Assembly: GCA_945878865.1 (NCBI GenBank) | Contig: CAMCUD010000009.1 | Location: forward strand, 1 to 64,000 | Direction of reading: 5' to 3' | DNA length: 64,000 nucleotides | Source of the DNA: Bifidobacterium breve | Lineage (GTDB): Bacteria; Actinomycetota; Thermoleophilia; Solirubrobacterales; Solirubrobacteraceae | Shown here: positions 40,701 to 56,466 of the stretch, piece after piece | How positions within the stretch are numbered: position 1 is the stretch's first letter | Layout of the letters: every line of letters starts with the position of its first letter | Position numbers and translations under genes: made by a program | The notes under the pieces: generated by a model | Told to the model about the DNA's origin: nothing | What the model saw: only the letters and a program-made list of their open reading frames with translations | Database searches by the model: none

Positions 40701-43700
40701 CTGGTCACCCTCGGGGTGGGAGGAGACCGTCAGGCTCGTCCCTGTCACCGTGACCTGCACCGCGACCGCCCGGCCGGGCTCGAGCACGAGCGGCGCACGC
40801 ACGTCGAGGTCCGCGATCACGGGGGTGTCGGTGTCGATCGCCGCGTGCAGCGCGAGGTCGAGGAACAGCGTGGCCGGCGCGACGACCTGGCCGAGCACCG
40901 CGTGATCGGCGAGCCACGGCTGCTCGCCGAGCGACAGACGCCCGGTCCACACGGCGCCGCCGCCGGGCAGCGGCACCTTCGCCTTGAGGATCGGGTGCTC
41001 GCCCGCCGAGAGCCCGAGCGCGCCGGCATCCTGCGCGCCGGCCTTCGGCTCGAGCCAGTAGTGCTGGTGCTGGAACGCGTACGTCGGCAGCGGCGTGTGC
41101 GGCGGCGTGTCGCCGAAGAGCGCGGTCCAGTCCACCTGCACGCCCGCGGCGTGCGCCTCGCCGAGCGAGCGGATGAACCGCTCCAGCCCGCCGTCGTCGC
41201 GGCGCAGGCTCGTGAGCGCCGGCACGTCGGCCGCGCCGTCCTCGGAGTCGAGGATCTCCTGCAGCGGCGCGGCGAGCACCGGGTGCGGGCCGATCTCCAC
41301 GAGCGCGCCGGCGCCGTCGCCGATGAGCTTCCGGGCCGCCGGTTCGAAGAGGACGGTCTGGCGCAGGTTGCGATACCAGTGCTCGGCGTCCATCGTCTCG
41401 GTCGCCAGTCGCTCGCCGGTGACCGTGGAATACAGCGGGATGGTGCTCGGCAGCGGCGCGACGTCGGCCAGGCCGTCGAGCATGAGGTCGCGGACCGCCT
41501 CGACGTGCGGCGAGTGGCCCGGCACGGTCGAGAGGATCCGCCGCACCCGGACGTTGTCGTCCTCGCAGGCGGTGGCGAACTCGTCGATGATCTCGGGGTC
41601 GCCGGAGATGACGAGCGAGTGCGGCCCGTTCACCGCCGCGACGGTGATGCGCTCGCCCAGGTGCGGGGTGCGCTCGGCGAGCTGCTCGAGCGAGAGGCTC
41701 ACGGAGAGCATGCCGCCGACCCCTGCGATCGTCGCGAGCGCCTGGCTGCGGACCGCCACGATCTTCGCGGCGTCCTCGAGCGTGAGCCCGCCGATGACGT
41801 GCGCCGCGGCGATCTCGCCCTGGGAGTGCCCGACGACCGCGGCCGGCTCGACGCCGAACGAGCGCCACAGCCCGGCGAGCGACACCATGATCGAGAACAG
41901 CACCGGCTGGACGACCTCGATGAGGTCGATGGACGGCTGGCCCGGCTCCCCGCGCAGCACGGCCTCGAGGGAGAAGTCGACGTGCGGTGCGAGCGCCTGC
42001 CCGCACGCGCGCATGTGCTCGGCGAAGACGGGCGACGCGTCGAGGAGCTCCACGGCCATGCCCTCCCACTGGCCGCCCTGGCCGGGGAACACGAACGCCG
42101 GCCGGCGCTCGCCGCGCACGACGCCCTGGGCGATCGCCTCGACGAACTCCCCGCGCGCCAGTGCGGAGAGCCGGTCGGCGAGCTCGTCCAGCCCCCCGAC
42201 GACCGCGACCGCGCGGTGCGACAGGTGGGGGCGCTCGAGGGCGAGCGACGCGGCCACGGCGGAGGGGTCGAGCGCCGGGTTCGCGGCGACGTACGACCCG
42301 AGCCGCTCGGCCTGACCGGCGAGGCCGGCGGCGGTCGAGCCGGAGACGAGGAAGGGCAGGACCCGCGAGGGGATCTCGGGCATGGCCGGCGCGGCCGCCG
42401 CTTCGGGTGGCGCCTCCTCGACGATGAGGTGGGCGTTCGTCCCGCTGATCCCGAACGACGACACGGCCGCGCGGCGCGGGCGGCCGCCGGCGGGCCACGG
42501 GGCGGGCTCGGTCAGGAGCTCGACGCCGCCACCCTCCCACGGGATGTGCGGCGACGGCTCATCGGCCCACAGCGTGCGCGGCAGCGTCTCATGCTGCAGC
42601 GCCTGCACCATCTTGATGACGCCGCCGACGCCCGCCGCGGCTTGCGAGTGGCCGATGTTCGACTTCAGCGAGCCGAGGCGCAGCGGCCCGTCCGGGCGCT
42701 CGCGGCCGTACGTCGCGATGAGCGCCTGCGCCTCGATCGGGTCGCCGAGGCTCGTGCCCGTGCCGTGCGCCTCGACCGCGTCGACGTCGCCGGGTTCCAG
42801 GCCGGCGTTGGCCAGTGCCGCGCGGATCACGCGCTCCTGCGACGGGCCGGACGGCGCCGCGAACCCGTTCGACGCGCCGTCCTGGTTGACCGCGCTGCCG
42901 CGCACCACGGCGAGCACGCGGTGCCCGCGTTCGCGGGCGACCGAGAGGCGCTCCATGACGATGACGCCGACGCCGTCGGCCAGGCCCGTGCCGTTGCCAC
43001 CGGCGCCGAACGCGCGGCACCGCCCGTCGGGCGACAGCACGCGCTGGCGCGACATCTCCACGAACGGCTCGGAGGTCGCCAGCAGCGTCACGCCGCCGGC
43101 GAGCACGAGGTCGCACTCGTCGTTGCGCAGCGCCTGCGAGGCCAGGTGCATCGCCACGAGCGACGACGAGCACGCGGTGTCGACGGACACGGCCGGCCCG
43201 ACGAGCCCGAGCTGGTAGCTGATGCGCCCGGAGACCGCGCTCGTGATGCCGCCTGTGGTCCGCAGGCCCTGCACCTCCTGCGCGTGGTTGCCTTCGCCGT
43301 AGCCGGAGTCGAACGCGCCGGCGAACACGCCCGTGCGCGAGCCGCGCAGGCCGAGCGGGTCGATGCCCGCATGCTCGAGCGCCTCCCACGCGCACTCCAG
43401 CAGGAGCCGCTGCTGCGGATCCATCGCGAGCGCCTCGCGCGGGTTGATGCCGAAGTGGTCGGGGTCGAACGCGCCGCCGTCGAGGAAGCCGCCGTGGCGG
43501 GTGTAGGTCGTGTCGAACTGCTCGGGGTCGGCGTCGAAGATGCGCTCGACGTCCCAGCCGCGGTCGGCGGGGAACTCACCGATCGCGTCGCGCCCCTCCA
43601 CGACCAGCTCCCACAGATCCTCCGCGGAGCCCACGCCGCCCGGGTAGCGGCACGCCATGCCGACGATCGCCAGCGGCTCGTCGGTGGTGGTGCGCTGGGT

Positions 43701-46700
43701 CGCGCGCGGGCCGGGGGTGTCGCGCTCGCGGCCCTCGGCCAGCTCGCGCAGCAGCCCGCCGACGGCCGTCGGCGTCGGGTAGTCGAAGACGAGCGTCGCG
43801 GGGAGCGTCAGCCCGGTCGCGCGCGAGATGCGGTTGCGCAGCTCGACGCCCGACAGCGAGTCGATGCCGAGCTCCTTGAACGTGCGCTGCGCGTCGATCT
43901 GCGACGGCGAGCCGTGGCCGAGCACCGCGGCGAGGTGCTCGCGGACGAGGTCGAGCGCGAGCGCGTCGCGGTCGCTCTCCGGCGCGGCGGCGAGGCGGCC
44001 GGCGAACGAGTCCGCCGCTGCGGTGACCCGCGCGGCGCCGCGGAACAGCCCGGACAGGACCGGCGGGAGCAGCCCGTCGCGCGCCTGCGCCCGCAGGCCG
44101 GGGCGGTCGAGCAGCGTCGGCAGCAGGACCGGGGCGCCGAGCGCGCGGGCGGTGTCGATGAGGTCGAGCCCGTCGTCGTCGGGGATCGGGACGAGCCCGG
44201 CCGGCGCGCGCCGCTCGGCGTCCTCTCCGGTGACGTGGCCGGTCATCCCCGTCGCGGTCTCCCACACGCCGAAGGCCAGCGACTGCGCCGGGAGCCCTTC
44301 GGCCCGGCGCCGGTCGGCGAGGGCGTCGAGCACCGCGTTCGCCGCGGCGTAGTTCCCCTGGCCGGGGAGGCCGAGCGTCGCGGCGACCGACGAGTAGAGG
44401 ACGAACTCGGCGAGATCGAGGTCGCGCGTGAGCGCGTCGAGGTGCAGCGCCGCGTCGGCCTTCGGGCGCAGCACGCGCTCGAGCTGCGCGGCGGTCAGCC
44501 CGGCGATCGTCGCGTCGTCGAGCACCCCGGCGGTGTGGAAGACGGCGGTCAGCGGCCGCTCGGCGGGGACCTGCGCCAGCAGCTGCTCCACCTCGTCGCG
44601 CTCGCCCACGTCGCACGCGACGACCGTCGCCTCGCACCCGAGCTGCGCGAGCGCGTCGACAAGCTCGGCCGCGCCCTCGGCCGCCGGGCCGCGGCGGCTG
44701 GCCAGCAGCAGATGCCGCGCGCCATCGCGCTCGGCGAGGCGCCGCGCGAGCATCGCGCCCAGGCCGCCGGTGCCGCCGGTGATGAGGATCGTCCCGTCCG
44801 GGTCGAGCGGCTGCGGCACGCGCAGGACGAGCTTGCCGGTGTGCCGCGCCTCGCGCAGCGTCCGCAGCGCGTCAGGCGCGTCGCGGACGTCGCGGGTGCT
44901 GATCGGCGCGTGATGCAGCACCCCGCGATCGAACAGCTCCACGATCTCGGCGAGCATCTCGCCGATCCGCTCGGGCGTCGGGTCGGTGAGCAGGTCGAAC
45001 GCCTGGTAGCGCACGCCGGGGTGCGCGGCGGCGACCTCGTCGGGGTCGCGGATGTCCGTCTTGCCCATCTCGACGAACCGGCCGCCGCGCGGGAGCAGGT
45101 CGAGCGACGCGTCGACGAGCTCGCCGGCGAGCGAGTCGAGCACGACGTCCGCGCCCCGGCCGTCGGTTGCGGAAAGGAACGTCTCGCGGAACTCGCTCGT
45201 CCTGGAGCTCGCCCGGTGCGTCTCGTCGACGCCCAGTGCGGCGAGCGTCTCCCACTTGTCCGGGTGCGACGTCGCGTAGATCTCCGCGCCGAGGTGCCGC
45301 CCGAGCTGCAGCGCGGCGGTGCCGACGCCGCCGGTCGCGCTGTGGATGACGAGCGTCTCGCCGGTCTGCAGGTCGGCGAGGTCGACGAGCGCGTAGTACG
45401 CGGTGAGGAAGACGGCCGGGACCGAGGCGGCCTGGGCGTGCGTCCAGCCCTCCGGTGTGGGCACGACCAGCCGGCGGTCGGTGATCGCCTCCGGGCCGAA
45501 CGCGTTGGGGATGAGACCGAGGACGCGGTCGCCGGGCGCCAGGTCGGTGACGTCCTCACCGACATCGAGCACGACGCCGGAGCCCTCGAGGCCCAGCGTC
45601 GTCTCGTCGACGAGACCGAGTGCTCGGGCGACGTCGGCGAAGTTGATGCCGGCCGCGTGGACCGCCACGCGCACCTCGCCGGGGTCGAGCGGGCGCCCGA
45701 AGTCGGCGCGGGGTGCGAACTCGAGGCTCTCCAGCGTGCCGGGCGTCGTGATGCGCAGATGCCACGCGCGGTCGTCGACGCGCGGAGCGGCGGCGTCGGC
45801 GGTCGTCAGCCGCGGCACGCGCACGACACCGCCTCGCCCGGCGAGCACCGGCTCCTCCGCGGCGAGTCCGTCGAGCAGCGCGGCCCGGGGCGCGTCGCTG
45901 GCGTCGAGGTCGAGGAGGGTGAAGCGATCCGGGTTCTCCGTGTGCGCGCTGCGCAGCAGGCCGACGAGCGCGGCCTGCGCGACGTCCGGCGCCTCGCGGT
46001 GGTCGAGCGCGACCGCGCCCCGGGTGACCACCACCAGCCGCGCCGCCGCGAGCGCCTCGGACGCAAGGCACGCCTGGAGCAGCTCGAGCTCCCCGGCGAC
46101 CAGCTCATGGAGATCCGCGGCCGCGACCGGCGCGAGGACGACATCCGGCGCGGGCGCCCCGTCGGCAATCGCGGCCTCCAACGCGGCGAGGTCCGCGTGG
46201 CGCTCGGGCACGAGCCCCCCGAGCGGATCCTCGTCGCCGAGCACGGCGAGCCGCGGCACCGCGCGGTCGGCGGCGGCCGCGAGCTCCTCCCAGCGCACGG
46301 CGTACAGCCCGTCGGTCGTCTCGGCCCCGCCGCGCAGCTGGCGGCGGTCCAGCGGGCGCATGCCGAAGGCGTCGATCGTGAGGACCGGCGCGCCCGCGTC
46401 GTCGGCCACGACGATCCGCGTCTCGCCGCCCTCTGCGGTCAGTGCGGCACGCACCGCCGTCGCGCCCGGCGTGCGGAGCTCGACCCCGGTGAACGAGAAC
46501 GGCACGGGCATCCCGTCGCCGAGGTCGCGCGCCACGGCGGCCTGCAGGACGGCGTCCAGCAGCGCCGGATGCATCGCGAAGCCGTCGGTGGCGACGGCCT
46601 CAGGGAGCGCCGCCTCGGCGTGCACGACGCCACCTGCGCGCGTGACCGCGCGCAGGCCCTGGAACACCGGGCCGTATTCGTAGCCCGCGTCCGCGAGCCG

Positions 46701-49700
46701 GTCGTAGAGGTCCTCGCCGGCGAGGTCCTCGGCACCCGCGGGCGCTGACGGGAGCGCAGCGCTGACGCCGGCGGCCGCGCCCAGCGTCGCGGTCGCATGC
46801 TGCGTCCACGCGCCGGCGTCGCCCGCGCGCGAGTGGACCGCCAGCTCGCGCCGGCCGTCGGCGCCGGGTGCGCCCACCGTCACCTGCAGCGCCACCGCCG
46901 CGCCCTCGCCGAGCACGAGCGGCGCCTGCAGCGCGAGCTCCTCGATGCGCGGCGTGTCCGTCTGCCCCGCGGCGTGCAGCGCGAGGTCGAGGAACCCGGT
47001 CGCGGGCAGCAGCACCGTGCCGGCGACCGCGTGGTCGGCCAGCCACGGATGGCGGTCGAGCCCGAGCCGGCCCGTGTACAGCGTCCCGCCGTCAGGCAGC
47101 GGGATCGCCGCGTCGAGCAGCGGGTGCCCCGTGGCGGCCTGGCCGATCGCCGACGGGTCGCCCCCCCCTGCGGCGCGCGGCGCCAGCCAGTAGCGCTCGT
47201 GCTGGAAGGCGTACGTCGGCAGCGGCGCGCGCGGCGCGTCGCCCAGTAGCGGGCGCCAGTCGACCGGCAGGCCGGCGACGTGCGCCTCGGCCAGGCTGAG
47301 CAGGAACCGCCGCGGCCCGCCCTCGTCGCGGCGCAGGCTGCCGATCGCCGCGATGGTCTCCGGGTCGCGCCCGGCCTGTTCGAACGTCTCGAGCGTCTGG
47401 CTCGTCAGCACCGGGTGCGGGCCCAGCTCGACGACGGTGTCGAACCCTTCGTCGGCGAGCGCGCGCACCGCGGTGTCGTAGAGGACGGTCTGGCGCAGGT
47501 TCTCGTACCAGTAGTCCGCGTCCATCGCGGCGCCGTCGAGCCGCTTCCCGGTGACCGTCGAGTAGATCGGGACGGCACTTGCGCGCGGGGTCACCGAGGC
47601 GAACTGCGCGAGCAGCTCGTCGCGGACCGACTCGATCTGCGCGGAGTGCGCGGCGTAGTCGACGGGCAGGAGCTTCGCCCGCACGTCGTCGGCCTCGCAG
47701 CGGGCGATGAGGTCGTGCAGCCCGTCGAGCTCGCCGCTGACGACGACCGACGTCGGGCTGTTCACCGCCGCGAGCGACACCCGGCCGTCGTAGGGCGCGA
47801 CGAGCTCCGCCGCGCGCTCGGCGCTCGCGCCGACGGCGACCATCCCACCCTGGCCCGACAGCGTCCCGGTCAGCACCCGGCTGCGGCCGGCGACGACGAG
47901 CGCGGCGTCATCCAGCGACAGCGCGCCCGCGATGTGCGCGGCGGCGATCTCGCCCTGCGAGTGGCCGACGACGGCAGCCGGCGCCACGCCGTGCGCCTCC
48001 CACAGGCGGGCGAGCGACACCATCACGGCCCAGAGCGCGGGTTGCACCACGTCGACGCGCTCCAGGGTGGGCGCGTCGGGCGCCCCGCGCAGGACGTCCT
48101 CGAGCACCCAGTCGACGTGCGGCGCCAGCGCGGCCTGACACGCGCGCAGGTGCTCGGCGAAGACAGGCGACGCGTCGAGCAGCTCGACGGCCATGCCCTC
48201 CCACTGGCCGCCCTGGCCGGGGAAGACGAACGCGGGGCGGCGGCCCGGGCGCGCGACGCCGGCGATCACGTCGTCGGAGAACTCCCCGCGCGCGAGGCCT
48301 GCGAGCGCCGCGGTCGCCGATGCGAGGTCGTCGGCCACGGCGACGGCCCGGTGGCCGAGCTGGGCGCGGCCGAGTGCGAGGGACGCGGCGACCGCGTCCG
48401 CGTCGAGGTCCGGGTGCTCGGCGAGGTGGCTGGCGACCCGGTCGGCCTGCGCGGTGAGCGCGTCGGCGTTCGCGCCCGAGACGGCGAACGGGAGCGGCCC
48501 GGCCGGTGCCGTAGACCGCGCCGTCTCCAGCGCTGGCGCCTGCTCGAGCAGCACGTGCGCGTTCGTCCCCGACACGCCGAACGACGACACGCCCGCACGC
48601 CGCGTCCGCTCGCCCGCCGGCCACGGCGCCGGCTCGGTGAGCAGCTCCACCGCGCCGCTGTCCCAGTCGACGTGCGACGACGGCGCGTCGGCCCACAGCG
48701 TCGGCGGCAACGTCTCGTGGCGCAGCGCCTGCACCATCTTGATGACGCCGCCCACACCCGCTGCGGCCTGCGCGTGCCCGATGTTCGACTTCAGCGAGCC
48801 GAGCCGCAGCGGCGTCTCGCGATCCTGCCCGTACGCGGAGAGCAGGGCGGTCGCCTCGATCGGGTCGCCGAGCGTCGTGCCGGTGCCGTGCGCCTCGACG
48901 GCGTCGACCTCGTCCGGGGCGAGCCCGGCGTTGGCCAGCGCCGCGGCGATCACCCGCTCCTGCGAGCGGCCCGACGGCGCGGTCAGCCCGTTTGACGCGC
49001 CGTCCTGGTTGACCGCGCTGCCGCGAATGACCGCGAGCACCTCGTGGCCCTGCGCGAGCGCGACGGACAGCGGCGCGAGCGCGAGCACGCCGGCGCCCTC
49101 GCTCCAGCCGGTGCCGTTCGCGTCGTCGCCGAACGCCCGGCAGCGGCCGTCGGGCGACAGCCCGCGCTGGCGGGAGAACTCCACGAAGATGCCCGGCTGC
49201 GCCATGACCGCGGCGCCGCCCGCCAGCGCGAGGTCGCACTCGCCCGCGCGCAGCGCCTGACACGCGAGGTGCAGCGCGACAAGCGACGACGAGCACGCGG
49301 TGTCGACCGACACCGCAGGGCCCTCGAGCCCGAGGACGTAGGAGACCCGGCCCGAGGCGACGCTCGACTCGGTGCCCGTCAGCGCGTAGCCCGCGGACTT
49401 CTCGTCGGGCAGGTGCAGCTGCGGCCCGTAGTCCTGGCTCATCACGCCGGTGAAGACGCCCGTGCGCGAGCCGCGCAGCCCGAGGGGGTCGATGCCGGCC
49501 GTCTCCAGCGCCTCCCACGAGCACTCGAGCAGCAGGCGCTGCTGCGGATCCATCGCCAGGGCCTCGCGCGGGGAGATGCCGAACAGCTCCGGGTCGAACC
49601 GCGCGGCGTCGTAGAGGAAGCCGCCGCGGTCGACGTACGTCGTGCCGAGTCGCTCGCCGTCGGGATCGACGAGCCGGTCGAGGTCCCACCCGCGGTCGTC

Positions 49701-52700
49701 GGGGAACGGGCCGATCGCGTCACCGCCCGAGGCCACGAGCTCCCACAGCTCCTCAGGCGACCGCACGCCGCCCGGGTAGCGGCACGCCATGCCGATGATG
49801 GCGATCGGCTCGTCGGCCGCCACGCGCGACGGACCCGTGGCGGCACCCGCGCCCGCCGTGCCGGTGAGCTCGGCGACGACCCGCTCGGCGAGCGCCGCCG
49901 GGGTCGGGTGGTCGAACAGCGCGGTCGCCGGGATCCGCAGGCCGGTCAGCGCGTTGACGCGGTTGCGCAGCTCGACGATCCCCGGCGAGTCGAAGCCGAG
50001 CTCCTTGAACGACAGCCGCGCATCGACGTCCGCGGCCGACGCGTGGCCGAGCACGACGGCGACCTGGCCGACGACCGCGTCGAGGGCGGCCTGGTCGCGC
50101 TCGGAGGCCGTCAGCGTGCGGACCCGGGCGGCGAAGGAGTCGTCGGGCTCGGGCTCGTCGGGGGCGTCGGCCACCAGCACCGCGGCGCCCGGCGCAGCCG
50201 GTTCCACGTCGAGCCAGTAGGACCGTCGCTGGAACGCGTACGTCGGCAGCCGCACCCGTGCCCCCTCAGGCACGGCGGACGCCCAGTCGACGGTGCCGCC
50301 GCGCACCCACAGCTCCGCCATCGCGGCGGTGAAGCGCGCCGGCCCGCCCTGGTCGCGGCGCAGCGTCGCGAGTGCCGCGGCCTGGCCGGGCTCGCCGAGG
50401 ACGTGCTCGGCCGTGCTCTCGATCGGCACGCTGAGGACCGGGTGCGGGCCGACCTCGAGGAACGTGCGGTACCCGTCGCGCAGCAGCGCCTCCACCGCGG
50501 GGGCGAAGCGGACGGTCTGGCGCAGGTTGCGCAGCCAATGCCCTGCGTCCAGCGGCTCGTCGGCCGTCGTCGAATACAGCGGGATCGCCGCCTCGGCGGG
50601 AACGACCTCACCCAGCTCGTCGAGCAGCTGCTCGCCCACCGCGTCGATCTGCGGCCCGTGCGACGCGTAGTCGACGGGCAGGATCTTCGCCCGGATCTCC
50701 TCGGCCTCACAGGCGGCGAGCAGCGTGCGCAGCGCGTCGAGCGCGCCGGAGACGATGACGTCCGTCGGGCCGTTGATCGCCGCGATGACGACGTCGTCGC
50801 CCAGCCCGGCGATCCGCGCTTCGACCTCGTCGGCCGGCAGCGAGACGCTCATCATCCCGCCCTGGCCCGCGATGCCGGTCAGCGCGCGGCTGCGGACGGC
50901 GACCACGCGCGCGGCGTCATCCAGGCTCAGCGCGCCCGCCACATGGGCCGCCGCGATCTCGCCCTGTGAGTGCCCGACCACCGCCGCGGGCTCCACGCCG
51001 CGCGAGCGCCACAGCTCGGCGAGCGACACCATGATCGCCCATAGCACCGGCTGCACGATCTCCGTGCGTTCCAGCGACGGCGCGCCCTCGCCGCCACGCA
51101 GCGCGGCCTGGAGGGAGAAGCCGGCGTGCCGGGCGAGCGCCTCCTCGCACGCGCGCATCTTCTCGGCGAACACCGGCTCGCTGTCGAGCAGCTCGAGCGC
51201 CATGCCCTCCCACTGGCCGCCCTGGCCGGGGAAGACGAAGACGGGCCGGTCGGCGCGCAGCTCCGGGTCGGCGACGCCCTCGATCACGCGCCCGTCGGGC
51301 CGGCCCTCGGCCAGCGCGCGGGCGGCGTCGCGGGCGCCGTCGAGGAGCACCGCCCGACGCGGGAACGCGGTGCGGGTGGTGGCCAGCGACCGCGCGACGT
51401 CGGCGGCCGCGGCGTCCACGTCGGCGAGCTGCCCGGCGATCTGGCGCACGGCGCCCACGCTCTTCGCACTGACGATCCACGGCGCGGGATCCGCCGTCGG
51501 AGCCGCAGCCGGCTCGCGCGCCGGCGGCGCCTCGACGACGACGTGGCAGTTCGTCCCACCGAGCCCGAACGAGCTGACGCCCGCCACGCGCGAATCCCCC
51601 GTCCACGCGGCCGTCTCGGTCTGCACGCGCAGGCCGAGGGCATCGAGGTCGAGCTCGGGGTTGGGCCGCTCGAAGTTCAGGCTCGCAGGCAGCTCGCCGC
51701 GGTCCATGGCGAGGGCGACCTTCAGCAGCCCGGTGACGCCCGCGGCCGCTTCGAGGTGCCCGACGTTCGTCTTCGCCGACCCGACGGCGAGCGGTCGCCC
51801 GCCGAACACCGCGCCGAGCGCCGACGCTTCGACCCGGTCGCCGACCGGCGTGCCCGTCCCGTGCAGCTCGACGTAGCCGACCTGCTCCGCGGCGATGCCC
51901 GCCGCCTCGTGCGCTGCGCGCAGCATCCGCTCCTGCGCCCCCTGCTCGGGGACGGTCAGTCCTTCGCCGCCGCCGTCGTTGTTCACCGCGCTGCCGCGGA
52001 TCACGCAGTAGACGGGATCCCCGTCGGCGACTGCGGCCGCCAGCGGCTTGAGCACGAGGAACGCGCCGCCCTCGCCGCGCACGAACCCGTTGGCCCGCGC
52101 GTCGAGCGTGAAGCACCGGCCGTCCGGCGACAGCGCGCCGAGCCGGTCGAGCGCCAGCGCGCGGCCGAGGGCGAGGTTGAGCTGCACGCCGCCCGCCAGG
52201 GCGATCGTCGACTCCCCGGACCGCAGGCTCTCGCACGCGAGGTGCACGGCGACGAGGGAGGAGGACTGCCCGGTGTCGACCGTCAGGCTCGGCCCGCCGA
52301 GGCCCAGCGCGTACGACACGCGGTTGGCGATCATGCTCCGCTGCGTGCCGGTGAACGCCCGGCGCGCCACGCCCTCCGCGCCGGCGGCGAGCGCCAGCTC
52401 CGCGTAGTCGGCCGCGATCGCCCCGACGTACACGCCGGCCCGCGTCTCACCGAGCGCGCCGGGGACGATGCCCGCGTCCTCCAACGCCTCCCACGCGAGT
52501 TCGAGCGCGAGGCGCTGCTGCGGATCCATCGCCGTCGCCTCGCGGGGCGCGATCCCGAAGAACGCCGCGTCGAAGCGGTCGACGCCGTCGAGGAAACCGC
52601 CGCGCCGCAGGCCGGCCGGCACCTCGTCGAGCCCGGCCAGGCGGCTCGGCGGCGTGTCGCCGATCGCGTCACGGCCCTCGCGCAGCAGCCGCCAGAACTC

Positions 52701-52772
52701 CGCGGGATCCGACGCGCCGGGAAGCCGGCAGGACACACCGACGACGGCCACCGTGCCTGGGTCGAGCGCCAT
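37728..52772 (-). CDS. Type I modular polyketide synthase, loading module + 2 extension modules + thioesterase (~5,014 aa)
   Basis: Domain order read from motifs: KSQ-AT-ACP-KS-AT-DH-ER-KR-ACP-KS-AT-DH*-KR-ACP-TE. ATG at 52772 preferred over listed GTG 52784, which would overlap the AGGAGG ribosome-binding site at 52784-52789. Confidence 0.95.
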   Translation of the reverse strand: MALDPGTVAVVGVSCRLPGASDPAEFWRLLREGRDAIGDTPPSRLAGLDEVPAGLRRGGFLDGVDRFDAAFFGIAPREATAMDPQQRLALELAWEALEDAGIVPGALGETRAGVYVGAIAADYAELALAAGAEGVARRAFTGTQRSMIANRVSYALGLGGPSLTVDTGQSSSLVAVHLACESLRSGESTIALAGGVQLNLALGRALALDRLGALSPDGRCFTLDARANGFVRGEGGAFLVLKPLAAAVADGDPVYCVIRGSAVNNDGGGEGLTVPEQGAQERMLRAAHEAAGIAAEQVGYVELHGTGTPVGDRVEASALGAVFGGRPLAVGSAKTNVGHLEAAAGVTGLLKVALAMDRGELPASLNFERPNPELDLDALGLRVQTETAAWTGDSRVAGVSSFGLGGTNCHVVVEAPPAREPAAAPTADPAPWIVSAKSVGAVRQIAGQLADVDAAAADVARSLATTRTAFPRRAVLLDGARDAARALAEGRPDGRVIEGVADPELRADRPVFVFPGQGGQWEGMALELLDSEPVFAEKMRACEEALARHAGFSLQAALRGGEGAPSLERTEIVQPVLWAIMVSLAELWRSRGVEPAAVVGHSQGEIAAAHVAGALSLDDAARVVAVRSRALTGIAGQGGMMSVSLPADEVEARIAGLGDDVVIAAINGPTDVIVSGALDALRTLLAACEAEEIRAKILPVDYASHGPQIDAVGEQLLDELGEVVPAEAAIPLYSTTADEPLDAGHWLRNLRQTVRFAPAVEALLRDGYRTFLEVGPHPVLSVPIESTAEHVLGEPGQAAALATLRRDQGGPARFTAAMAELWVRGGTVDWASAVPEGARVRLPTYAFQRRSYWLDVEPAAPGAAVLVADAPDEPEPDDSFAARVRTLTASERDQAALDAVVGQVAVVLGHASAADVDARLSFKELGFDSPGIVELRNRVNALTGLRIPATALFDHPTPAALAERVVAELTGTAGAGAATGPSRVAADEPIAIIGMACRYPGGVRSPEELWELVASGGDAIGPFPDDRGWDLDRLVDPDGERLGTTYVDRGGFLYDAARFDPELFGISPREALAMDPQQRLLLECSWEALETAGIDPLGLRGSRTGVFTGVMSQDYGPQLHLPDEKSAGYALTGTESSVASGRVSYVLGLEGPAVSVDTACSSSLVALHLACQALRAGECDLALAGGAAVMAQPGIFVEFSRQRGLSPDGRCRAFGDDANGTGWSEGAGVLALAPLSVALAQGHEVLAVIRGSAVNQDGASNGLTAPSGRSQERVIAAALANAGLAPDEVDAVEAHGTGTTLGDPIEATALLSAYGQDRETPLRLGSLKSNIGHAQAAAGVGGVIKMVQALRHETLPPTLWADAPSSHVDWDSGAVELLTEPAPWPAGERTRRAGVSSFGVSGTNAHVLLEQAPALETARSTAPAGPLPFAVSGANADALTAQADRVASHLAEHPDLDADAVAASLALGRAQLGHRAVAVADDLASATAALAGLARGEFSDDVIAGVARPGRRPAFVFPGQGGQWEGMAVELLDASPVFAEHLRACQAALAPHVDWVLEDVLRGAPDAPTLERVDVVQPALWAVMVSLARLWEAHGVAPAAVVGHSQGEIAAAHIAGALSLDDAALVVAGRSRVLTGTLSGQGGMVAVGASAERAAELVAPYDGRVSLAAVNSPTSVVVSGELDGLHDLIARCEADDVRAKLLPVDYAAHSAQIESVRDELLAQFASVTPRASAVPIYSTVTGKRLDGAAMDADYWYENLRQTVLYDTAVRALADEGFDTVVELGPHPVLTSQTLETFEQAGRDPETIAAIGSLRRDEGGPRRFLLSLAEAHVAGLPVDWRPLLGDAPRAPLPTYAFQHERYWLAPRAAGGGDPSAIGQAATGHPLLDAAIPLPDGGTLYTGRLGLDRHPWLADHAVAGTVLLPATGFLDLALHAAGQTDTPRIEELALQAPLVLGEGAAVALQVTVGAPGADGRRELAVHSRAGDAGAWTQHATATLGAAAGVSAALPSAPAGAEDLAGEDLYDRLADAGYEYGPVFQGLRAVTRAGGVVHAEAALPEAVATDGFAMHPALLDAVLQAAVARDLGDGMPVPFSFTGVELRTPGATAVRAALTAEGGETRIVVADDAGAPVLTIDAFGMRPLDRRQLRGGAETTDGLYAVRWEELAAAADRAVPRLAVLGDEDPLGGLVPERHADLAALEAAIADGAPAPDVVLAPVAAADLHELVAGELELLQACLASEALAAARLVVVTRGAVALDHREAPDVAQAALVGLLRSAHTENPDRFTLLDLDASDAPRAALLDGLAAEEPVLAGRGGVVRVPRLTTADAAAPRVDDRAWHLRITTPGTLESLEFAPRADFGRPLDPGEVRVAVHAAGINFADVARALGLVDETTLGLEGSGVVLDVGEDVTDLAPGDRVLGLIPNAFGPEAITDRRLVVPTPEGWTHAQAASVPAVFLTAYYALVDLADLQTGETLVIHSATGGVGTAALQLGRHLGAEIYATSHPDKWETLAALGVDETHRASSRTSEFRETFLSATDGRGADVVLDSLAGELVDASLDLLPRGGRFVEMGKTDIRDPDEVAAAHPGVRYQAFDLLTDPTPERIGEMLAEIVELFDRGVLHHAPISTRDVRDAPDALRTLREARHTGKLVLRVPQPLDPDGTILITGGTGGLGAMLARRLAERDGARHLLLASRRGPAAEGAAELVDALAQLGCEATVVACDVGERDEVEQLLAQVPAERPLTAVFHTAGVLDDATIAGLTAAQLERVLRPKADAALHLDALTRDLDLAEFVLYSSVAATLGLPGQGNYAAANAVLDALADRRRAEGLPAQSLAFGVWETATGMTGHVTGEDAERRAPAGLVPIPDDDGLDLIDTARALGAPVLLPTLLDRPGLRAQARDGLLPPVLSGLFRGAARVTAAADSFAGRLAAAPESDRDALALDLVREHLAAVLGHGSPSQIDAQRTFKELGIDSLSGVELRNRISRATGLTLPATLVFDYPTPTAVGGLLRELAEGRERDTPGPRATQRTTTDEPLAIVGMACRYPGGVGSAEDLWELVVEGRDAIGEFPADRGWDVERIFDADPEQFDTTYTRHGGFLDGGAFDPDHFGINPREALAMDPQQRLLLECAWEALEHAGIDPLGLRGSRTGVFAGAFDSGYGEGNHAQEVQGLRTTGGITSAVSGRISYQLGLVGPAVSVDTACSSSLVAMHLASQALRNDECDLVLAGGVTLLATSEPFVEMSRQRVLSPDGRCRAFGAGGNGTGLADGVGVIVMERLSVARERGHRVLAVVRGSAVNQDGASNGFAAPSGPSQERVIRAALANAGLEPGDVDAVEAHGTGTSLGDPIEAQALIATYGRERPDGPLRLGSLKSNIGHSQAAAGVGGVIKMVQALQHETLPRTLWADEPSPHIPWEGGGVELLTEPAPWPAGGRPRRAAVSSFGISGTNAHLIVEEAPPEAAAAPAMPEIPSRVLPFLVSGSTAAGLAGQAERLGSYVAANPALDPSAVAASLALERPHLSHRAVAVVGGLDELADRLSALARGEFVEAIAQGVVRGERRPAFVFPGQGGQWEGMAVELLDASPVFAEHMRACGQALAPHVDFSLEAVLRGEPGQPSIDLIEVVQPVLFSIMVSLAGLWRSFGVEPAAVVGHSQGEIAAAHVIGGLTLEDAAKIVAVRSQALATIAGVGGMLSVSLSLEQLAERTPHLGERITVAAVNGPHSLVISGDPEIIDEFATACEDDNVRVRRILSTVPGHSPHVEAVRDLMLDGLADVAPLPSTIPLYSTVTGERLATETMDAEHWYRNLRQTVLFEPAARKLIGDGAGALVEIGPHPVLAAPLQEILDSEDGAADVPALTSLRRDDGGLERFIRSLGEAHAAGVQVDWTALFGDTPPHTPLPTYAFQHQHYWLEPKAGAQDAGALGLSAGEHPILKAKVPLPGGGAVWTGRLSLGEQPWLADHAVLGQVVAPATLFLDLALHAAIDTDTPVIADLDVRAPLVLEPGRAVAVQVTVTGTSLTVSSHPEGDQGGLVEHAVGTLAPPDDAPVSAVGDWPADGEELVRTTVYAQLSETGFDLGPVFQGMERAARDGYDVIVEAALADEAEDAHDYDLHPALLAAGLHATPGLPIGFSGVRLHQRGVAALTLRVTPDGRVAAEDPGGAPVISIDAVRTQPIEHVQPARRSLRNGLYAIDWTAAPHTGGTADFAVVDALENAGDTPPAHLVLPVTAPATDDLAADAHTLTETVMTLLQEFLATEALATTRLVMATRGAVATAPGEHPDLRHSPLAGLLRAANSEHPDRFALLDLDDTELTDDLLAAALATGESEIAVRDGALLVPRVHAYRDADPDAAPPADPAGTMLVTGGPTGLGAMLARHLAEAQGAKHLLLVSRRGPTAPGASELVAELADAGCTAEVVACDVTDRDALAQLLASIPADRPLTAVFHSAAALDDGVLTGMTPERLHRVMRPKLDAALLLHELTRDLGVAEFVLFSSAASCLGSPGQSNYAAANAFLDALAATRRADGLPGIALAFGFWDRVTELTAHLTTDDGRRVGPIDMLPMSDAFGLQLIDAARATGEALLAPMRMDLPALAARAEAGILPPILGDLVRVRPRRAARVAGGYAAANGNGASGPRGADAEAIRGEIAASLGYATPASVDMELTFLELGFDSLVSLELRKRLQALTGLTLPATVMFDHPTPSTLIAHIQGELGVTPEPAAAAANGNGHVNGNGNGAGLGAMFRRAHLLGKLKDGVAVAHAASALRPRFGVSHIKEQAPSVIPLTQGDAEPVLYCIPSLIASSGPHEYARFAKEFQGRREVVAVPVPGFAPGELLPSRLDAVAGAQATAIALHADGRPFALVGFSTGGLLAYAVAAELAKHGVAPTSLTLVDSYTMETMWSIADAVFERMIAGDGEHPAIDEERLTAMGAYLGLLTDWTPQPPAVPTLLVKATTPVPGVIRVGDWTATWPQRTTTADVPGTHLTMLEDDAPTTARAVEDWVAAHPAAAPPVARRRPRFRIPR
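37760..43690 (-). other. PKS module 2 + release: KS-AT-DH(degenerate)-KR-ACP-TE
   Basis: VDTACSSSLVAMH; GHSQGE with STVPGHS (41514-41525); DH HAVLGQVVAP but HPALLAAGLH; KR GGPTGLG, LDD, GQSNYAAAN; ACP ELGFDSLVS; TE VGFSTGGLLAY. Boundaries approximate. Confidence 0.9.
43730..49815 (-). other. PKS module 1: KS-AT-DH-ER-KR-ACP (fully reducing)
   Basis: VDTACSSSLVALH; GHSQGE with VDYAAH (47646-47660); DH HAVAGTVLLP and HPALLDAVLQ; ER SATGGVGTAALQLGRHLGA; KR GGTGGLG, LDD, GQGNYAAAN; ACP ELGIDSLSG. Boundaries approximate. Confidence 0.9.
49860..52760 (-). other. PKS loading module: KSQ-AT-ACP
   Basis: KS active site VDTGQSSSLVAVH (Gln codon 52266-52268); AT GHSQGE with VDYASH (50658-50672); ACP ELGFDSPGIVELRNRV. 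Boundaries approximate. Confidence 0.9.
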
Positions 52773-52870
52773 CGGTTCTGTCACCTCCTCAGCGGCCGGA
52801 AGCGAGGCGGCGAGGCGGGGTCGTCGCGCGCGTCACGGGTGGATGCTTCGAGGCCTGCACGGAACCCGCC

Positions 52871-52897
52871 ACGATACACCCGGATCGGGGGACGCAA
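52871..52897 (-). promoter_or_regulatory. Candidate promoter for the PKS gene (TTGCGT-N15-TATCGT)
   Basis: Minus strand: -35-like TTGCGT (52897-52892), -10-like TATCGT (52876-52871); ~90-nt leader containing an SD. Confidence 0.3.
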
Positions 52898-52908
52898 CAG
52901 GGGAATGA

Positions 52909-52920
52909 TGTTCACGAACA
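52909..52920. promoter_or_regulatory. Candidate operator palindrome TGTTC-AC-GAACA upstream of the PKS gene
   Basis: 5-bp arms, 2-bp spacer, just upstream of the candidate -35. Confidence 0.35.
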
Positions 52921-52936
52921 CCCCGTGTTCACGGGG
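52921..52936 (-). terminator. Hairpin CCCCGT-GTTC-ACGGGG at the PPTase 3' end
   Basis: Perfect 6-bp GC-rich stem overlapping the PPTase stop codon. Confidence 0.4.
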
Positions 52937-53600
52937 CGGAAACCGCCACCGTGGCGCAGATCACACCGCCGGCCGCAGACCACCTCCCCGTGAACGTGCT
53001 CAGGTCGACGCCGGCGACCAGCGGCGCGGGGACGAGCAGCTCCGCGCGGAACGTCCCGCCCGGCCAGTCGAGCGAGACGCGGGCGTCCTCGAACCCGAGC
53101 CACCGGCCCGTCAGCGGGAACCAGGCCTTGTAGACGGCCTCCTTGGCGGTGAAGAGCAGCCGCCCCGCGTCGGCGCCCGGCCCGCCGGCCGCGACGATGT
53201 CGAGCTCCGGCCCGTGCGCGACCTCCTCCAGCACTCCCGGCGGCAGCGGCGCGTCGGGCTCGGCGTCGATGCCGAGTGCCAGCGCGTCGGTCGCGCGTGC
53301 CACCGCCGCGGCACGGAACCCGCGACAGTGCGTGATGCTCCCGACGACGCCCTCCGGCCACACGGGCGCTCCGCCCGCCCCGCCGGGGATCGCGGCTGGC
53401 GCCACCCCGAGCCGCTCGAGCGCGAGCCTCGCGCACGCCCGCCCGGTGATGAACTCGCGCCGGCGCTTGTCCACCGCGCGACCCAGCGTCTCGGCCTCGG
53501 ACGGGAAGAGCTCGATGTCGAGCAGGTCCCGCCGGGTCTCCGCGCACGCCGCGAACGGGGGGAGCAGGGGTTCGAGCACGTGCGAATGGTCCTCTAACAT
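52929..53600 (-). CDS. 4'-phosphopantetheinyl transferase (EntD/Sfp-like)
   Basis: KRRREFITGRACARLALERLGV; PVWPEGVVGSITHCRGF; GIDAEP; FTAKEAVYKAWFPLTGRWLGFEDA. Start MLEDHSHVLEP at 53600. Confidence 0.9.
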   Translation of the reverse strand: MLEDHSHVLEPLLPPFAACAETRRDLLDIELFPSEAETLGRAVDKRRREFITGRACARLALERLGVAPAAIPGGAGGAPVWPEGVVGSITHCRGFRAAAVARATDALALGIDAEPDAPLPPGVLEEVAHGPELDIVAAGGPGADAGRLLFTAKEAVYKAWFPLTGRWLGFEDARVSLDWPGGTFRAELLVPAPLVAGVDLSTFTGRWSAAGGVICATVAVSAP

Positions 53601-53608
53601 CCGCCGGA

Positions 53609-54601
53609 ATGCGTGACCACCCCGCCCGCCACGGACTGGCGATGGTCGCCCTGCTGGTCGGGTGCGCGTGGGCGCTCCTCGCATGCGGCGGGGGCGACGA
53701 CGGCCAGCCGCAGCGCGCGGACAAGGTGCTGCACTACCGCTCCGGACTGCACCTCAAGCCCAAGCGCACGCCCCGCCCGAACGAGGGCTCGCTGCGCATC
53801 GAGAAGGTCACGTACAGCTCGGTCGACGGCAAGCGCGTGCCGGCGCTGTTCGCCATCCCGACCGTCAGCGAGCCGCTCGCCTGTCTCATCTACCAGGGCG
53901 GGTTCGGCGCGACGAAGGAGGCCCTGCCCGAGCTGCGCCGCGGCCTGGCCGACGCGCGCCTGGCGACGTTCACGATCGATCCGCGCAACGTCGGCGATCG
54001 CGGCAGCGCCGAGGAGGCGGCGTCGGCCATCGTCACCCCGGAGGGTCTGCGCGCGATGATCGTCGACACCGTCGCCGATCTGCGGGTCGCCCTCGACTAC
54101 CTGGGCCGGCGCCCGGAGTGCAAGAAGAACATCGGCTACCTCGGCAGCTCGTTCGGCGCGTACGTCGGCGTGCTGCTCGCCGCGCAGGACGCGCGGATCA
54201 AAGGCACGGTGCTCGCGGGGATGGGGGCGACCTACGAGCAGCTGCTCCTCGTCCGGCCGCTGGCCGCCAAGGAGATCGAGAACCTGCCCGACTACGTGCC
54301 GCAGGCCGCCAGCGACCCGAAGGTCCTGCGCCGCTCCGTCCGGATCCTCTCCCCGTACGACCCGGAGAAGTGGATCAGCCGGATCTCGCCGCGCCCGGTG
54401 ATGCTCCTCAACGGCCGCTACGACCCGGTGGTGCTGCCCGGTGACGCGATGCAGATCGCCGCCGCCGCGGAGACGCCGAGGACCATCAGCTACTACAACG
54501 GCGGGCACGACCCGTTCGCGCGCGGCCCGGCGCTGACCTCGAACCTCATCCGCATCGCGCGGTTCCTCGTCACCACGCTGAACCTGCCCTACCCGATCTA
54601 G
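53609..54601 (+). CDS. Lipoprotein alpha/beta hydrolase (paralog A)
   Basis: Lipobox LLAC; GYLGSSFGAYVG nucleophile elbow; NGRYDPVVLPGDAMQIA. TAACAT box 8 nt upstream. Confidence 0.78.
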   Translation: MRDHPARHGLAMVALLVGCAWALLACGGGDDGQPQRADKVLHYRSGLHLKPKRTPRPNEGSLRIEKVTYSSVDGKRVPALFAIPTVSEPLACLIYQGGFGATKEALPELRRGLADARLATFTIDPRNVGDRGSAEEAASAIVTPEGLRAMIVDTVADLRVALDYLGRRPECKKNIGYLGSSFGAYVGVLLAAQDARIKGTVLAGMGATYEQLLLVRPLAAKEIENLPDYVPQAASDPKVLRRSVRILSPYDPEKWISRISPRPVMLLNGRYDPVVLPGDAMQIAAAAETPRTISYYNGGHDPFARGPALTSNLIRIARFLVTTLNLPYPI

Positions 54602-54763
54602 TGTCCTGATTCAGAAATTCGGCACCACCTGGTGGCGCCGGCATCGGATCTCCCGGCACCCGAGATCCCCAGCCGGACCGCCAGTACGACAGCGGATCTC
54701 GGTCACCGGGAGATCCGCGCCGGCATCCACCAGCTGCCACCGAATTCCTGAATCACGCCACTA
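54599..54763. repeat. ~165-bp imperfect palindromic element with two internal hairpins, ends coincide with the stop codons of both flanking genes
   Basis: Left tagtgtcctgattcagaaattcggcaccacctggtgg...cggatctcccggcacccgagatcc; reverse complement of right tagtggcgtgattcaggaattcggtggcagctggtgg...cggatctcccggtgaccgagatcc. Confidence 0.85.
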
Positions 54764-55561
54764 GGGCCGGCAGACGGCGATCCAGTCCGCCGGCTCGCCG
54801 TAGCGCAGGCCCGGCAGGAGCTTCAGCAGCTGCAGCGTCGACGCGCGGTGCACGCGGTAGTTCGCGCGGTCGTCGCCCGCCGCGGCGAGTTCGGGCTCGG
54901 CGGCTGGCGCGCCCCCGCGGTCGGTGACCTTGCGCTTCCACGAGACGGGCACGAGCGCCTTGGCCAGCGTGTACGGCTTGCGGTCGACGTCGAGCGGGTC
55001 GGGGTAGTGCCACTGAAAGTACATCCGCACGTCGGAGAAGTGCGGCGCGAGCGCGGCCTCGAACTCCTTGCGCGTCCACTCCCGCAGGTGGTGCGGGTTG
55101 CCGCTGAAGCCACCCTCGAAGTACGCGGCGTTCGGCGAGGAGATGAGCGCGACGTCGGCCTGGCGCATGTTGGCCATGAGGCGGTCGGGGTCCTGCACGT
55201 GCTCGATGCCCTCGAAGCAGACGGCGACGTCGAAGGCGCCGAGGTCCATCGGCTCGTCGACCGCGCCGACCTCGAACTCCGGGCCGGGGTAGTGCTCGCG
55301 CGCGGCGTCGACGGCGTCCTGCGCGATGTCGACGCCCCGCACGCGCACCGCGCCGGCGGCCTGCAGCAGATGCGAGCCGTAGCCGTTGCCGCAGCAGAGG
55401 TCGACGACCGTGCGCCCGGCGACGTAGTGGCCGGCGAACAGGTAGCGCGCGAGGTGGTCGCGGTACCCGCCCGACGTGATCGCGGCGGGCCGGATCCGCT
55501 CCCCGATGCCGTCGGTGAGGTTGTCCTCGAAGGTGCTCTTGCTCTCGCTCATCTGTGTCAT
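54761..55561 (-). CDS. Class I SAM-dependent methyltransferase
   Basis: TVVDLCCGNGYGSHLLQAAGAVRVRGVDIAQDAVDAAREHY; FDVAVCFEGIEHVQDPDRLM. Confidence 0.88.
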   Translation of the reverse strand: MTQMSESKSTFEDNLTDGIGERIRPAAITSGGYRDHLARYLFAGHYVAGRTVVDLCCGNGYGSHLLQAAGAVRVRGVDIAQDAVDAAREHYPGPEFEVGAVDEPMDLGAFDVAVCFEGIEHVQDPDRLMANMRQADVALISSPNAAYFEGGFSGNPHHLREWTRKEFEAALAPHFSDVRMYFQWHYPDPLDVDRKPYTLAKALVPVSWKRKVTDRGGAPAAEPELAAAGDDRANYRVHRASTLQLLKLLPGLRYGEPADWIAVCRP

Positions 55562-56466
55562 GTCTCCGCCGCCGGAGCGGTCGTCGCGGGCGCCTCGGTG
55601 ACGAGGGGTGAGGGGTACCAGGCGTTCTCGACCATCTCCGGACGCGCGATGACGAACGGCTCGTACGTCCGCGCGATGGTGGCGCGCAGCGCGCGCAGGT
55701 CGCGATGGTCGGCGGGATCGATCGGCGCGAGCATCCGCACGTCCAGCCGGGTGCCGTCGCGCTCGGTGATGACCGGCAGGAGCTTCGCGCCCGTGTGGAA
55801 CGCCACCGACGCGGGCCCGCTCGTAAGCGCCACGGAGCGTCCGAGGAACGGGGTCGAGGCCGAGCCTGGCACGTCGAAGGCGATGCCGACCGTGGCGCCG
55901 GACTCCACTAGTTCGGTCACCCGCTCGGGCGGCGCGTCGTTGGGGACCATGCGCGCGGAGCCGAGCCGGCCTTCGCCGTAGTGCTCGCGCAGGAACGTGT
56001 GCTCGCGGCCCACCAGGCCTGAGGGCTGTTCGTCCCACAGGTGCGCGCTGGCGACCATGTGGACATCGTATCCGTGCGCCTTGAGGATCCCGGGAACGGC
56101 CCAGGAGCCGCCGAAGTGCCCGAGCACCATCACGCAGCCGGCGCCGTCGCGGTGAGCATCATCCCAATGCTCAGGGTCGATAATCCGGGAATGGCGCAGC
56201 AGCTCGGGCCGCCAGAACAGCTCGCGCATCACGCAGCGCTCGCGCAGGTGCCGCCTCGTCACCGCTGCCACCTCATCGGCCCGCGGCGTGTAGTGCAGGA
56301 GGTCGCTCATCAGGCGCGTCGCGTCAGCCTCCTCCGCCGGATTGCGCAGGCGGCGCAGGCGCGGCTCGACCGCGCCGACCACCGCCACGGCCAGCGGCGC
56401 GGGAACCATCCGGTGGAGGGTCGGCGAGGTGTAGAGGTCCAGGGCGAGGTCGCGCAGGTCGGCCAT
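55558..56466 (-). CDS. LpxL/HtrB-like lysophospholipid acyltransferase (paralog B)
   Basis: VLGHFGGSWAVPGILKAHG; IAFDVPGSASTPFLGRSVALTSGPASVAFHTGAKLLPV; ENAWYPSPLVTEAP shared with paralog A. Start MADLRDLALDLY. Confidence 0.82.
   Translation of the reverse strand: MADLRDLALDLYTSPTLHRMVPAPLAVAVVGAVEPRLRRLRNPAEEADATRLMSDLLHYTPRADEVAAVTRRHLRERCVMRELFWRPELLRHSRIIDPEHWDDAHRDGAGCVMVLGHFGGSWAVPGILKAHGYDVHMVASAHLWDEQPSGLVGREHTFLREHYGEGRLGSARMVPNDAPPERVTELVESGATVGIAFDVPGSASTPFLGRSVALTSGPASVAFHTGAKLLPVITERDGTRLDVRMLAPIDPADHRDLRALRATIARTYEPFVIARPEMVENAWYPSPLVTEAPATTAPAAET

What the first reader, a model, noticed from the sequence alone, without database searches (positions are those of the whole stretch)
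54599..54763. 165-bp palindromic element whose two ends are the stop codons of the flanking convergent genes
The arms (about 65 nt each, roughly 80% complementary by eye) run from the TAG of the + gene to the TAG of the - gene: tagtg-N3-tgattcag[a/g]aattcgg...ctggtgg...cggatctcccgg. Each arm contains its own hairpin (GGATCTC-N9-GAGATCC at 54646-54668; GCGGATCTC-N9-GAGATCCGC at 54692-54718), so a cloverleaf/cruciform is possible. It is far longer than an intrinsic terminator and AT-richer at its tips. Candidates are a MITE/REP-like element that landed in an intergenic gap, a structured bidirectional terminator, or an RNA/protein binding structure.
Basis: seen in the sequence. Interest (0 to 1): 0.7.

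Follow-up and report, generated by a model that had tools for sequence, protein, structure and literature searches.

The report
IS630-type miniature transposon at stop codons
The 165-bp palindrome is one copy of a small non-coding jumping element, moved by IS630-type transposases, that is scattered through a whole class of soil actinobacteria and lands at CTAG, a sequence rare in the window that there often carries a gene's stop codon, so insertions usually do no damage.

Summary
In detail: a near-complete inverted repeat (54598-54764) lies between two convergent genes and supplies both of their TAG stops. It is not a one-off. A second copy (93% identical) lies elsewhere in the same genome. 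A covariance model finds relatives in 66 of 146 genomes of the family (Solirubrobacteraceae), and matches in other families of the order and class. The ends (CTAGTGTCNYGANTCRGAARTTCG) match the terminal inverted repeats of ~1.13-kb IS630-family insertion sequences in related genomes, and one cleanly readable copy shows duplication of TA inside CTAG, the known IS630 target. Congeners lack the element at the orthologous junction. It is therefore a MITE mobilised in trans by IS630. No IS630 transposase was found in the host genome, so the window copy looks like an immobile relic. CTAG is about 14-fold depleted in the window. 68 of 95 copies have a gene's stop codon exactly at the element end, against 17 of 55 background CTAG sites. 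Unusual features: near-constant length (mostly 164-171 bp), arms that covary, and folding that is always more stable on one strand (42/42). The last point hints at RNA or single-strand-DNA constraint but is unproven. The proposed cloverleaf is not conserved. This is a new member of a known kind (compare RUP, Correia/NEMIS).

The parts
54598..54764 (.). complete element including the CTAG at each end (167 bp); 54601-54761 is the element between the duplicated TAs
   Evidence: aligned with 25 full-length relatives; CM R1 match to model positions 1-168, 158.6 bits
54598..54621 (+). left terminal inverted repeat CTAGTGTCCTGATTCAGAAATTCG
   Evidence: matches the consensus CTAGTGNCNYGANNCNNNARTTCG found in 53/146 genomes with up to 1 mismatch and the TIRs of IS630 copies
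54741..54764 (-). right terminal inverted repeat, read on - strand CTAGTGGCGTGATTCAGGAATTCG
54599..54600 (.). left copy of the target TA (in CTAG; also within the TAG stop of the + gene)
   Evidence: TA-in-CTAG target: L106 reads ccc-TA-AGTG...CACT-TA-gct; 63/95 copies keep TA on both sides
54762..54763 (.). right copy of the target TA (in CTAG; also within the TAG stop of the - gene)
   Evidence: sequence
54676..54690 (+). apex of the hairpin (GACCGCCAGTACGAC), related to the family consensus CGTACCACCAGTACG
   Evidence: alignments; fold
53609..54601 (+). flanking gene, alpha/beta hydrolase fold; its TAG stop is the left end of the element
   Evidence: ORF; Pfam PF00561, E 3.5e-7
54761..56038 (-). 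flanking gene (methyltransferase; the true start probably lies inside this ORF); its TAG stop is the right end of the element
   Evidence: ORF; Pfam Methyltransf_25, E 3.9e-12

Best explanation
The element is a miniature inverted-repeat transposable element (MITE) of the IS630 (Tc1/mariner) family. It codes for nothing; an IS630 transposase supplied in trans recognises its ~24-bp terminal repeats, cuts it out and inserts it at TA within CTAG, duplicating the TA. CTAG is rare in this GC-rich DNA and often coincides with stop codons; in the window it was the 4-bp overlap of the TAG stops of two convergent genes. Because CTAG is its own reverse complement and the target is regenerated at both ends, each gene keeps a TAG stop and an unchanged length, so the insertion is nearly neutral. 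Selection against insertions elsewhere plausibly raises the share found at stop codons. Shown: family, copies, shared TIRs with IS630, boundary sequence, absence in congeners, stop-codon enrichment. Inferred: mobilisation in trans, cut-and-paste movement, loss of the helper from this lineage.
For: Second copy in the same genome, 93% identical, and 82-88% identical copies in both congeners. Multi-copy in 66/146 genomes and 20/25 genera of the family, in two further families of the order, and matched in further families of the class. Terminal repeats match 1.12-1.16-kb IS630 copies in related genomes (L054, L055, L153, L155, L157 and others; NF033545 268 bits, Pfam DDE_3); G149 carries about ten near-identical 1135-bp IS630 copies, the eight examined all flanked by CTAG at different sites. 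TA duplication inside CTAG readable in L106; outer bases C (56/63) and G (58/63) where TA is kept. Matches the published IS630 target (Tenzen & Ohtsubo 1991, title in the reference list of PMC2170065; TA duplication shown for ISY100 in PMC2170065). The orthologous gene pair in both congeners has no element, only 33 or 0 bp between the stops, and same-length gene ends. Several near-identical 170-bp copies at different sites in G071 point to recent movement. Stops exactly at the ends: 68/95 elements against 17/55 background CTAG sites, Fisher p 1.5e-6.
Against: No IS630 transposase was found in the host genome at E 1e-3 (assembly 96% complete, draft), and S. abyssi retains only a fragment, so mobilisation in this lineage is inferred. 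The MITE interior is not an internal deletion of any IS630 seen here; only the TIR (~24-30 bp) is shared. The strong conservation of length and fold is more than a plain MITE requires.
Confidence: 0.93

Rival explanations
1. Exapted bidirectional 3'-end element: the MITE persists because its long hairpin terminates or stabilises the transcripts of the convergent genes (or is cut by RNase III, as reported for NEMIS).
For: 72% of copies sit exactly at gene stops and 20% between two convergent genes; very stable hairpin on both strands; paired columns covary.
Against: No U-tract or intrinsic terminator hit; no Rfam match near gathering threshold; no preferred orientation relative to the gene reading into it (25:22); absent at the same junction in congeners, so not required there; position is largely explained by CTAG rarity plus purifying selection.
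Confidence: 0.15
2. Palindromicity is kept by a mutational process (template switching between arms, i.e. quasipalindrome correction) rather than by selection on a fold. This concerns how the arms stay matched and is compatible with the MITE reading.
For: The two own-genome copies differ at 12 positions, 10 of them in the terminal ~20 nt, and four left-arm changes (14, 18, 20, 21) are exactly mirrored on the right (154, 150, 148, 147) while the interior is ~99% identical. In 30 independent close pairs mirrored differences exceed random placement, 96 against 31.
Against: Arm mismatches such as left GGCGCC against right GGATGC persist across genera instead of being erased; very close pairs (>=95% identical) show almost no mirrored changes (2 of 37); the one-strand wobble bias is not predicted.
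Confidence: 0.35
3. REP/BIME-like palindrome moved by a Y1 (RAYT) transposase.
For: Palindromic, intergenic, at gene ends.
Against: Long TIRs shared with a DDE IS630 transposase and TA duplication in CTAG; only 2 copies in the own genome.
Confidence: 0.02
4. One-off local inverted duplication with no mobility.
For: None beyond the low copy number in this genome.
Against: Copies at unrelated loci in many genomes.
Confidence: 0.01

Closest known systems
RUP (repeat unit of pneumococcus), mobilised by IS630-Spn1
   Same: Small, non-coding, palindromic, TIRs like an IS630-family IS, TA at termini, over-represented between convergent genes (PMC3049150, PMC2229807)
   Different: RUP is 107 bp and AT-rich with about 110 copies in one genome; this one is GC-rich, ~165 bp, few copies per genome but class-wide, and ends exactly in shared stop codons
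Correia / NEMIS elements of Neisseria
   Same: ~107 and ~155 bp, 24-bp TIR, TA ends, transcripts fold into long stem-loops (PMC2229807)
   Different: Different sequence; NEMIS RNA is proposed to be cut by RNase III, which is untested here
IS630 / ISY100 insertion sequences
   Same: TIRs, TA duplication, preference for TA in CTAG (PMC2170065)
   Different: The autonomous IS is ~1.1 kb and encodes the transposase; the element here encodes none
MITEPsy1 (P. syringae)
   Same: 100-bp MITE whose target can be CTAG (PMC3189936)
   Different: Assigned tentatively to IS5 there, with a 4-nt duplication and different TIRs
REP / BIME elements
   Same: Extragenic palindromes at gene ends
   Different: Tied to tyrosine (RAYT) transposases and usually >100 copies per genome (PMC2817692 abstract)

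Membership tests
IS630-derived MITE | Short non-coding element with terminal inverted repeats, dispersed in several copies | tested here: met
IS630-derived MITE | TIRs match those of an autonomous IS630 element | tested here: met
   24-bp ends of L054 and L055 fit the MITE end pattern (15 specified positions) with 0 mismatches; others with 1-7
IS630-derived MITE | TA target duplication, preferably in CTAG | tested here: met
   (L106 clean TA duplication; CTAG context in most copies)
IS630-derived MITE | Empty site in relatives | tested here: met
   element absent at the orthologous junction in two congeners, though the sequence there has diverged, so the exact empty CTAG is inferred
IS630-derived MITE | Autonomous helper in the same genome | tested here: not met
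   no NF033545 match in G000 (draft, 96% complete); helper present in 18/146 family genomes, including a fragment in S. abyssi. Usual but not strictly defining, since the helper can be lost
IS630-derived MITE | Mobilisation in trans by the transposase | not testable with these tools
   needs an excision/transposition assay
Intrinsic (bidirectional) terminator | Short GC stem followed by a U-tract | tested here: not met
   0 sites
Known structured RNA (Rfam) | Match above gathering score | tested here: not met
   only generic hairpin families far below threshold
REP/BIME with RAYT | Associated Y1 transposase gene | not tested
   no search made for RAYT; the IS630 TIR match makes it unnecessary
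Cloverleaf/cruciform with two arm hairpins | Arm hairpins conserved among relatives | tested here: not met
   1 of 42 (the window copy only)

The most novel reading that the evidence does not exclude
The hairpin of one particular strand of the element is itself under selection across the class, as an RNA or as single-stranded DNA: a MITE family whose survival or movement depends on folding one strand, not only on its terminal repeats. Signs: near-constant 164-171 bp length at 56% median identity, 30/42 pairs with changes on both sides, minus strand more stable in 42/42 diverged copies, and single-arm changes that keep G.U on that strand outnumbering the opposite kind (47:16 in close pairs; 112:62 reconstructed events).
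Probability: 0.25. Interest if true: 0.6.

Novelty: new member of a known kind. Interest (0 to 1): 0.4.

Why it matters
It adds an apparently unreported, class-wide MITE family to Thermoleophilia (none was found in the papers searched) and gives a simple account of how a transposon can be nearly harmless: its target is a self-complementary, otherwise depleted tetranucleotide that often carries stop codons, and insertion regenerates the stop for genes on both sides. It also offers many diverged natural copies for asking whether MITE hairpins are kept by selection on a folded strand or by template-switch correction.

Tried and rejected
IS701 (DDE_5, PF13546) as parent because of its YTAG-type target (recalled from memory): no match in the own genome, and the IS630 TIR match then settled the question. 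A 4-bp CTAG duplication: disfavoured by L106, where TA alone is duplicated. Rfam: no family. Cloverleaf: not conserved and 16-27 kcal/mol worse. Orientation of the element relative to the gene reading into it: no bias (25:22). Convergent position as evidence of function: mostly explained by the CTAG background, since 17/55 background sites are also at stops and the both-sides comparison is not significant (19/95 against 4/55, p 0.058). Caveats: stop-codon calls rest on a GC3 frame heuristic, not annotation; the CM search favours full-length matches, but the pattern search allowed 115-175 bp and still returned only 164-169 bp; structure counts treat related sequences as separate.

Full report
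What is there. Between 54598 and 54764 of the window lies a 167-bp near-complete palindrome whose outermost bases are CTAG on both sides. The + gene (alpha/beta hydrolase fold, 53609-54601) and the - gene (methyltransferase, ending at 54761) each take their TAG stop from one of these CTAGs. The fold is far stronger than shuffled sequence on both strands (z -10.2 and -14.5).

It is one of many. The own genome has a second copy, 93% identical, in another contig. Copies at 82-88% identity occur in both congeners; one congener is Svornostia abyssi J379, identified through the named record, so the window comes from the Solirubrobacteraceae. A two-ended pattern allowing 115-175 bp found 164-169-bp elements only, in 17 of 146 family genomes. 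A one-ended TIR pattern hit 53 of 146, and a covariance model hit 66 of 146 genomes in 20 of 25 genera. The model also matches in two other families of the order and further families of the class. Most of the class-level elements inspected have the same CTAGTG ends and length 162-169 bp (one 186), with partly different interiors. Shorter (52-106 bp) and longer (228-288 bp) derivatives occur too.

What moves it. Searching for the same ends further apart gave 1.12-1.16-kb elements encoding IS630-family transposases (NF033545, 268 bits; DDE_3) with matching terminal repeats and CTAG flanks. G149 holds about ten near-identical 1135-bp copies; the eight examined are flanked by CTAG. The genome of the window has no IS630 transposase at E 1e-3, and S. 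abyssi has only a fragment, so the window copy is probably stranded. One subfamily (L106) shows the duplication cleanly: c-TA-AGTG...CACT-TA-g, that is TA duplicated inside CTAG. This is the IS630 target reported by Tenzen & Ohtsubo 1991 (cited in PMC2170065), and TA duplication was shown in vitro for ISY100 (PMC2170065).

Empty site and stop codons. In both congeners the same two genes are convergent with 33 bp or 0 bp between stops and no element, and the encoded C-termini have about the same length. The pre-insertion site in this lineage is therefore inferred to have been ...GATCTAGGGCC..., one CTAG carrying both stops. CTAG occurs 11 times in the window (two of them at the element's own ends) against 154 expected from base composition. 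Of 95 element copies, 68 have a coding gene's stop exactly at an element end and 19 have it on both sides; of 55 background CTAG sites, 17 and 4 do (Fisher p 1.5e-6 and 0.058). Target choice explains part of the pattern and selection against other sites plausibly explains the excess.

What is odd. Lengths cluster at 164-171 bp among 87 copies whose representatives are only 56% identical (median). Paired columns covary: on 25 sequences 90.2% of cells are paired against 25-35% when slid, and 30 of 42 pairs have changes on both sides. In all 42 representatives the strand I call minus folds more stably (mean -124 against -97 kcal/mol). Reconstructed changes from Watson-Crick to A.C on the plus strand (G.U on the minus) outnumber those to G.T, 112:62, and in close pairs 47:16, or 16:3 by pair. 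Orientation had been assigned by sequence homology, not by energy. The preference is weaker in the distant subfamily of the class (16 of 20 elements). Shared ancestry of mismatches and strand-biased mutation are not excluded, and the orientation relative to the reading gene is random (25:22), which speaks against a simple mRNA 3'-end role. The two own copies show a different process as well: four mirrored changes confined to the arm tips with an almost identical interior, as template-switch correction of a quasipalindrome would produce (from general knowledge of that process, not tested).

Verdict. A new family of IS630-derived MITE, comparable with RUP and Correia/NEMIS. RUP too is enriched between convergent genes (PMC3049150). 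The kind is known; the class-wide spread, the fixed length, the exact use of shared stop codons and the one-strand folding signal are the points of interest. Two literature searches aimed at this clade found no earlier description, but only open-licence papers were searchable.

Noticed in passing
window 32577 and 36786: Two further CTAG sites at which two coding frames end in convergent orientation on the same 4 bases (shared stop overlap), i.e. unoccupied sites of the kind the element uses.
   Followed up: partly
window 37728-53684: A 5018-aa ORF with repeated polyketide-synthase-like sequence (type I modular PKS by eye) next to a 4'-phosphopantetheinyl transferase (PF17837/PF01648): a probable polyketide gene cluster in Svornostia.
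   Followed up: no
L035, L184-L196 (e.g. L184 1024-1188): Subfamily with the same ends and ~165 bp but a different interior carrying GCGTCCTCG...CTGCGTCCTTG; seen in another family of the class and in G105.
   Followed up: partly
L056, L057 (288 bp), L061 (249 bp), L058, L059 (228-229 bp): Longer palindromic elements with the same terminal repeats in G105, G111 and G112; origin of the extra sequence unknown.
   Followed up: no
L084, L134-L138 (G071): Several near-identical 170-bp copies at unrelated sites although no IS630 at E 1e-60 was found in that draft genome: a recent burst.
   Followed up: partly
G149:C1 (L157, L170, L174, L176, L178-L181): About ten near-identical 1135-bp IS630 copies in one chromosome; a good candidate active helper.
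   Followed up: partly
all full-length copies: Unexplained: the same strand of the element folds more stably in all 42 family representatives, and recent single-arm changes favour wobble pairs on that strand, yet orientation relative to genes is random.
   Followed up: partly
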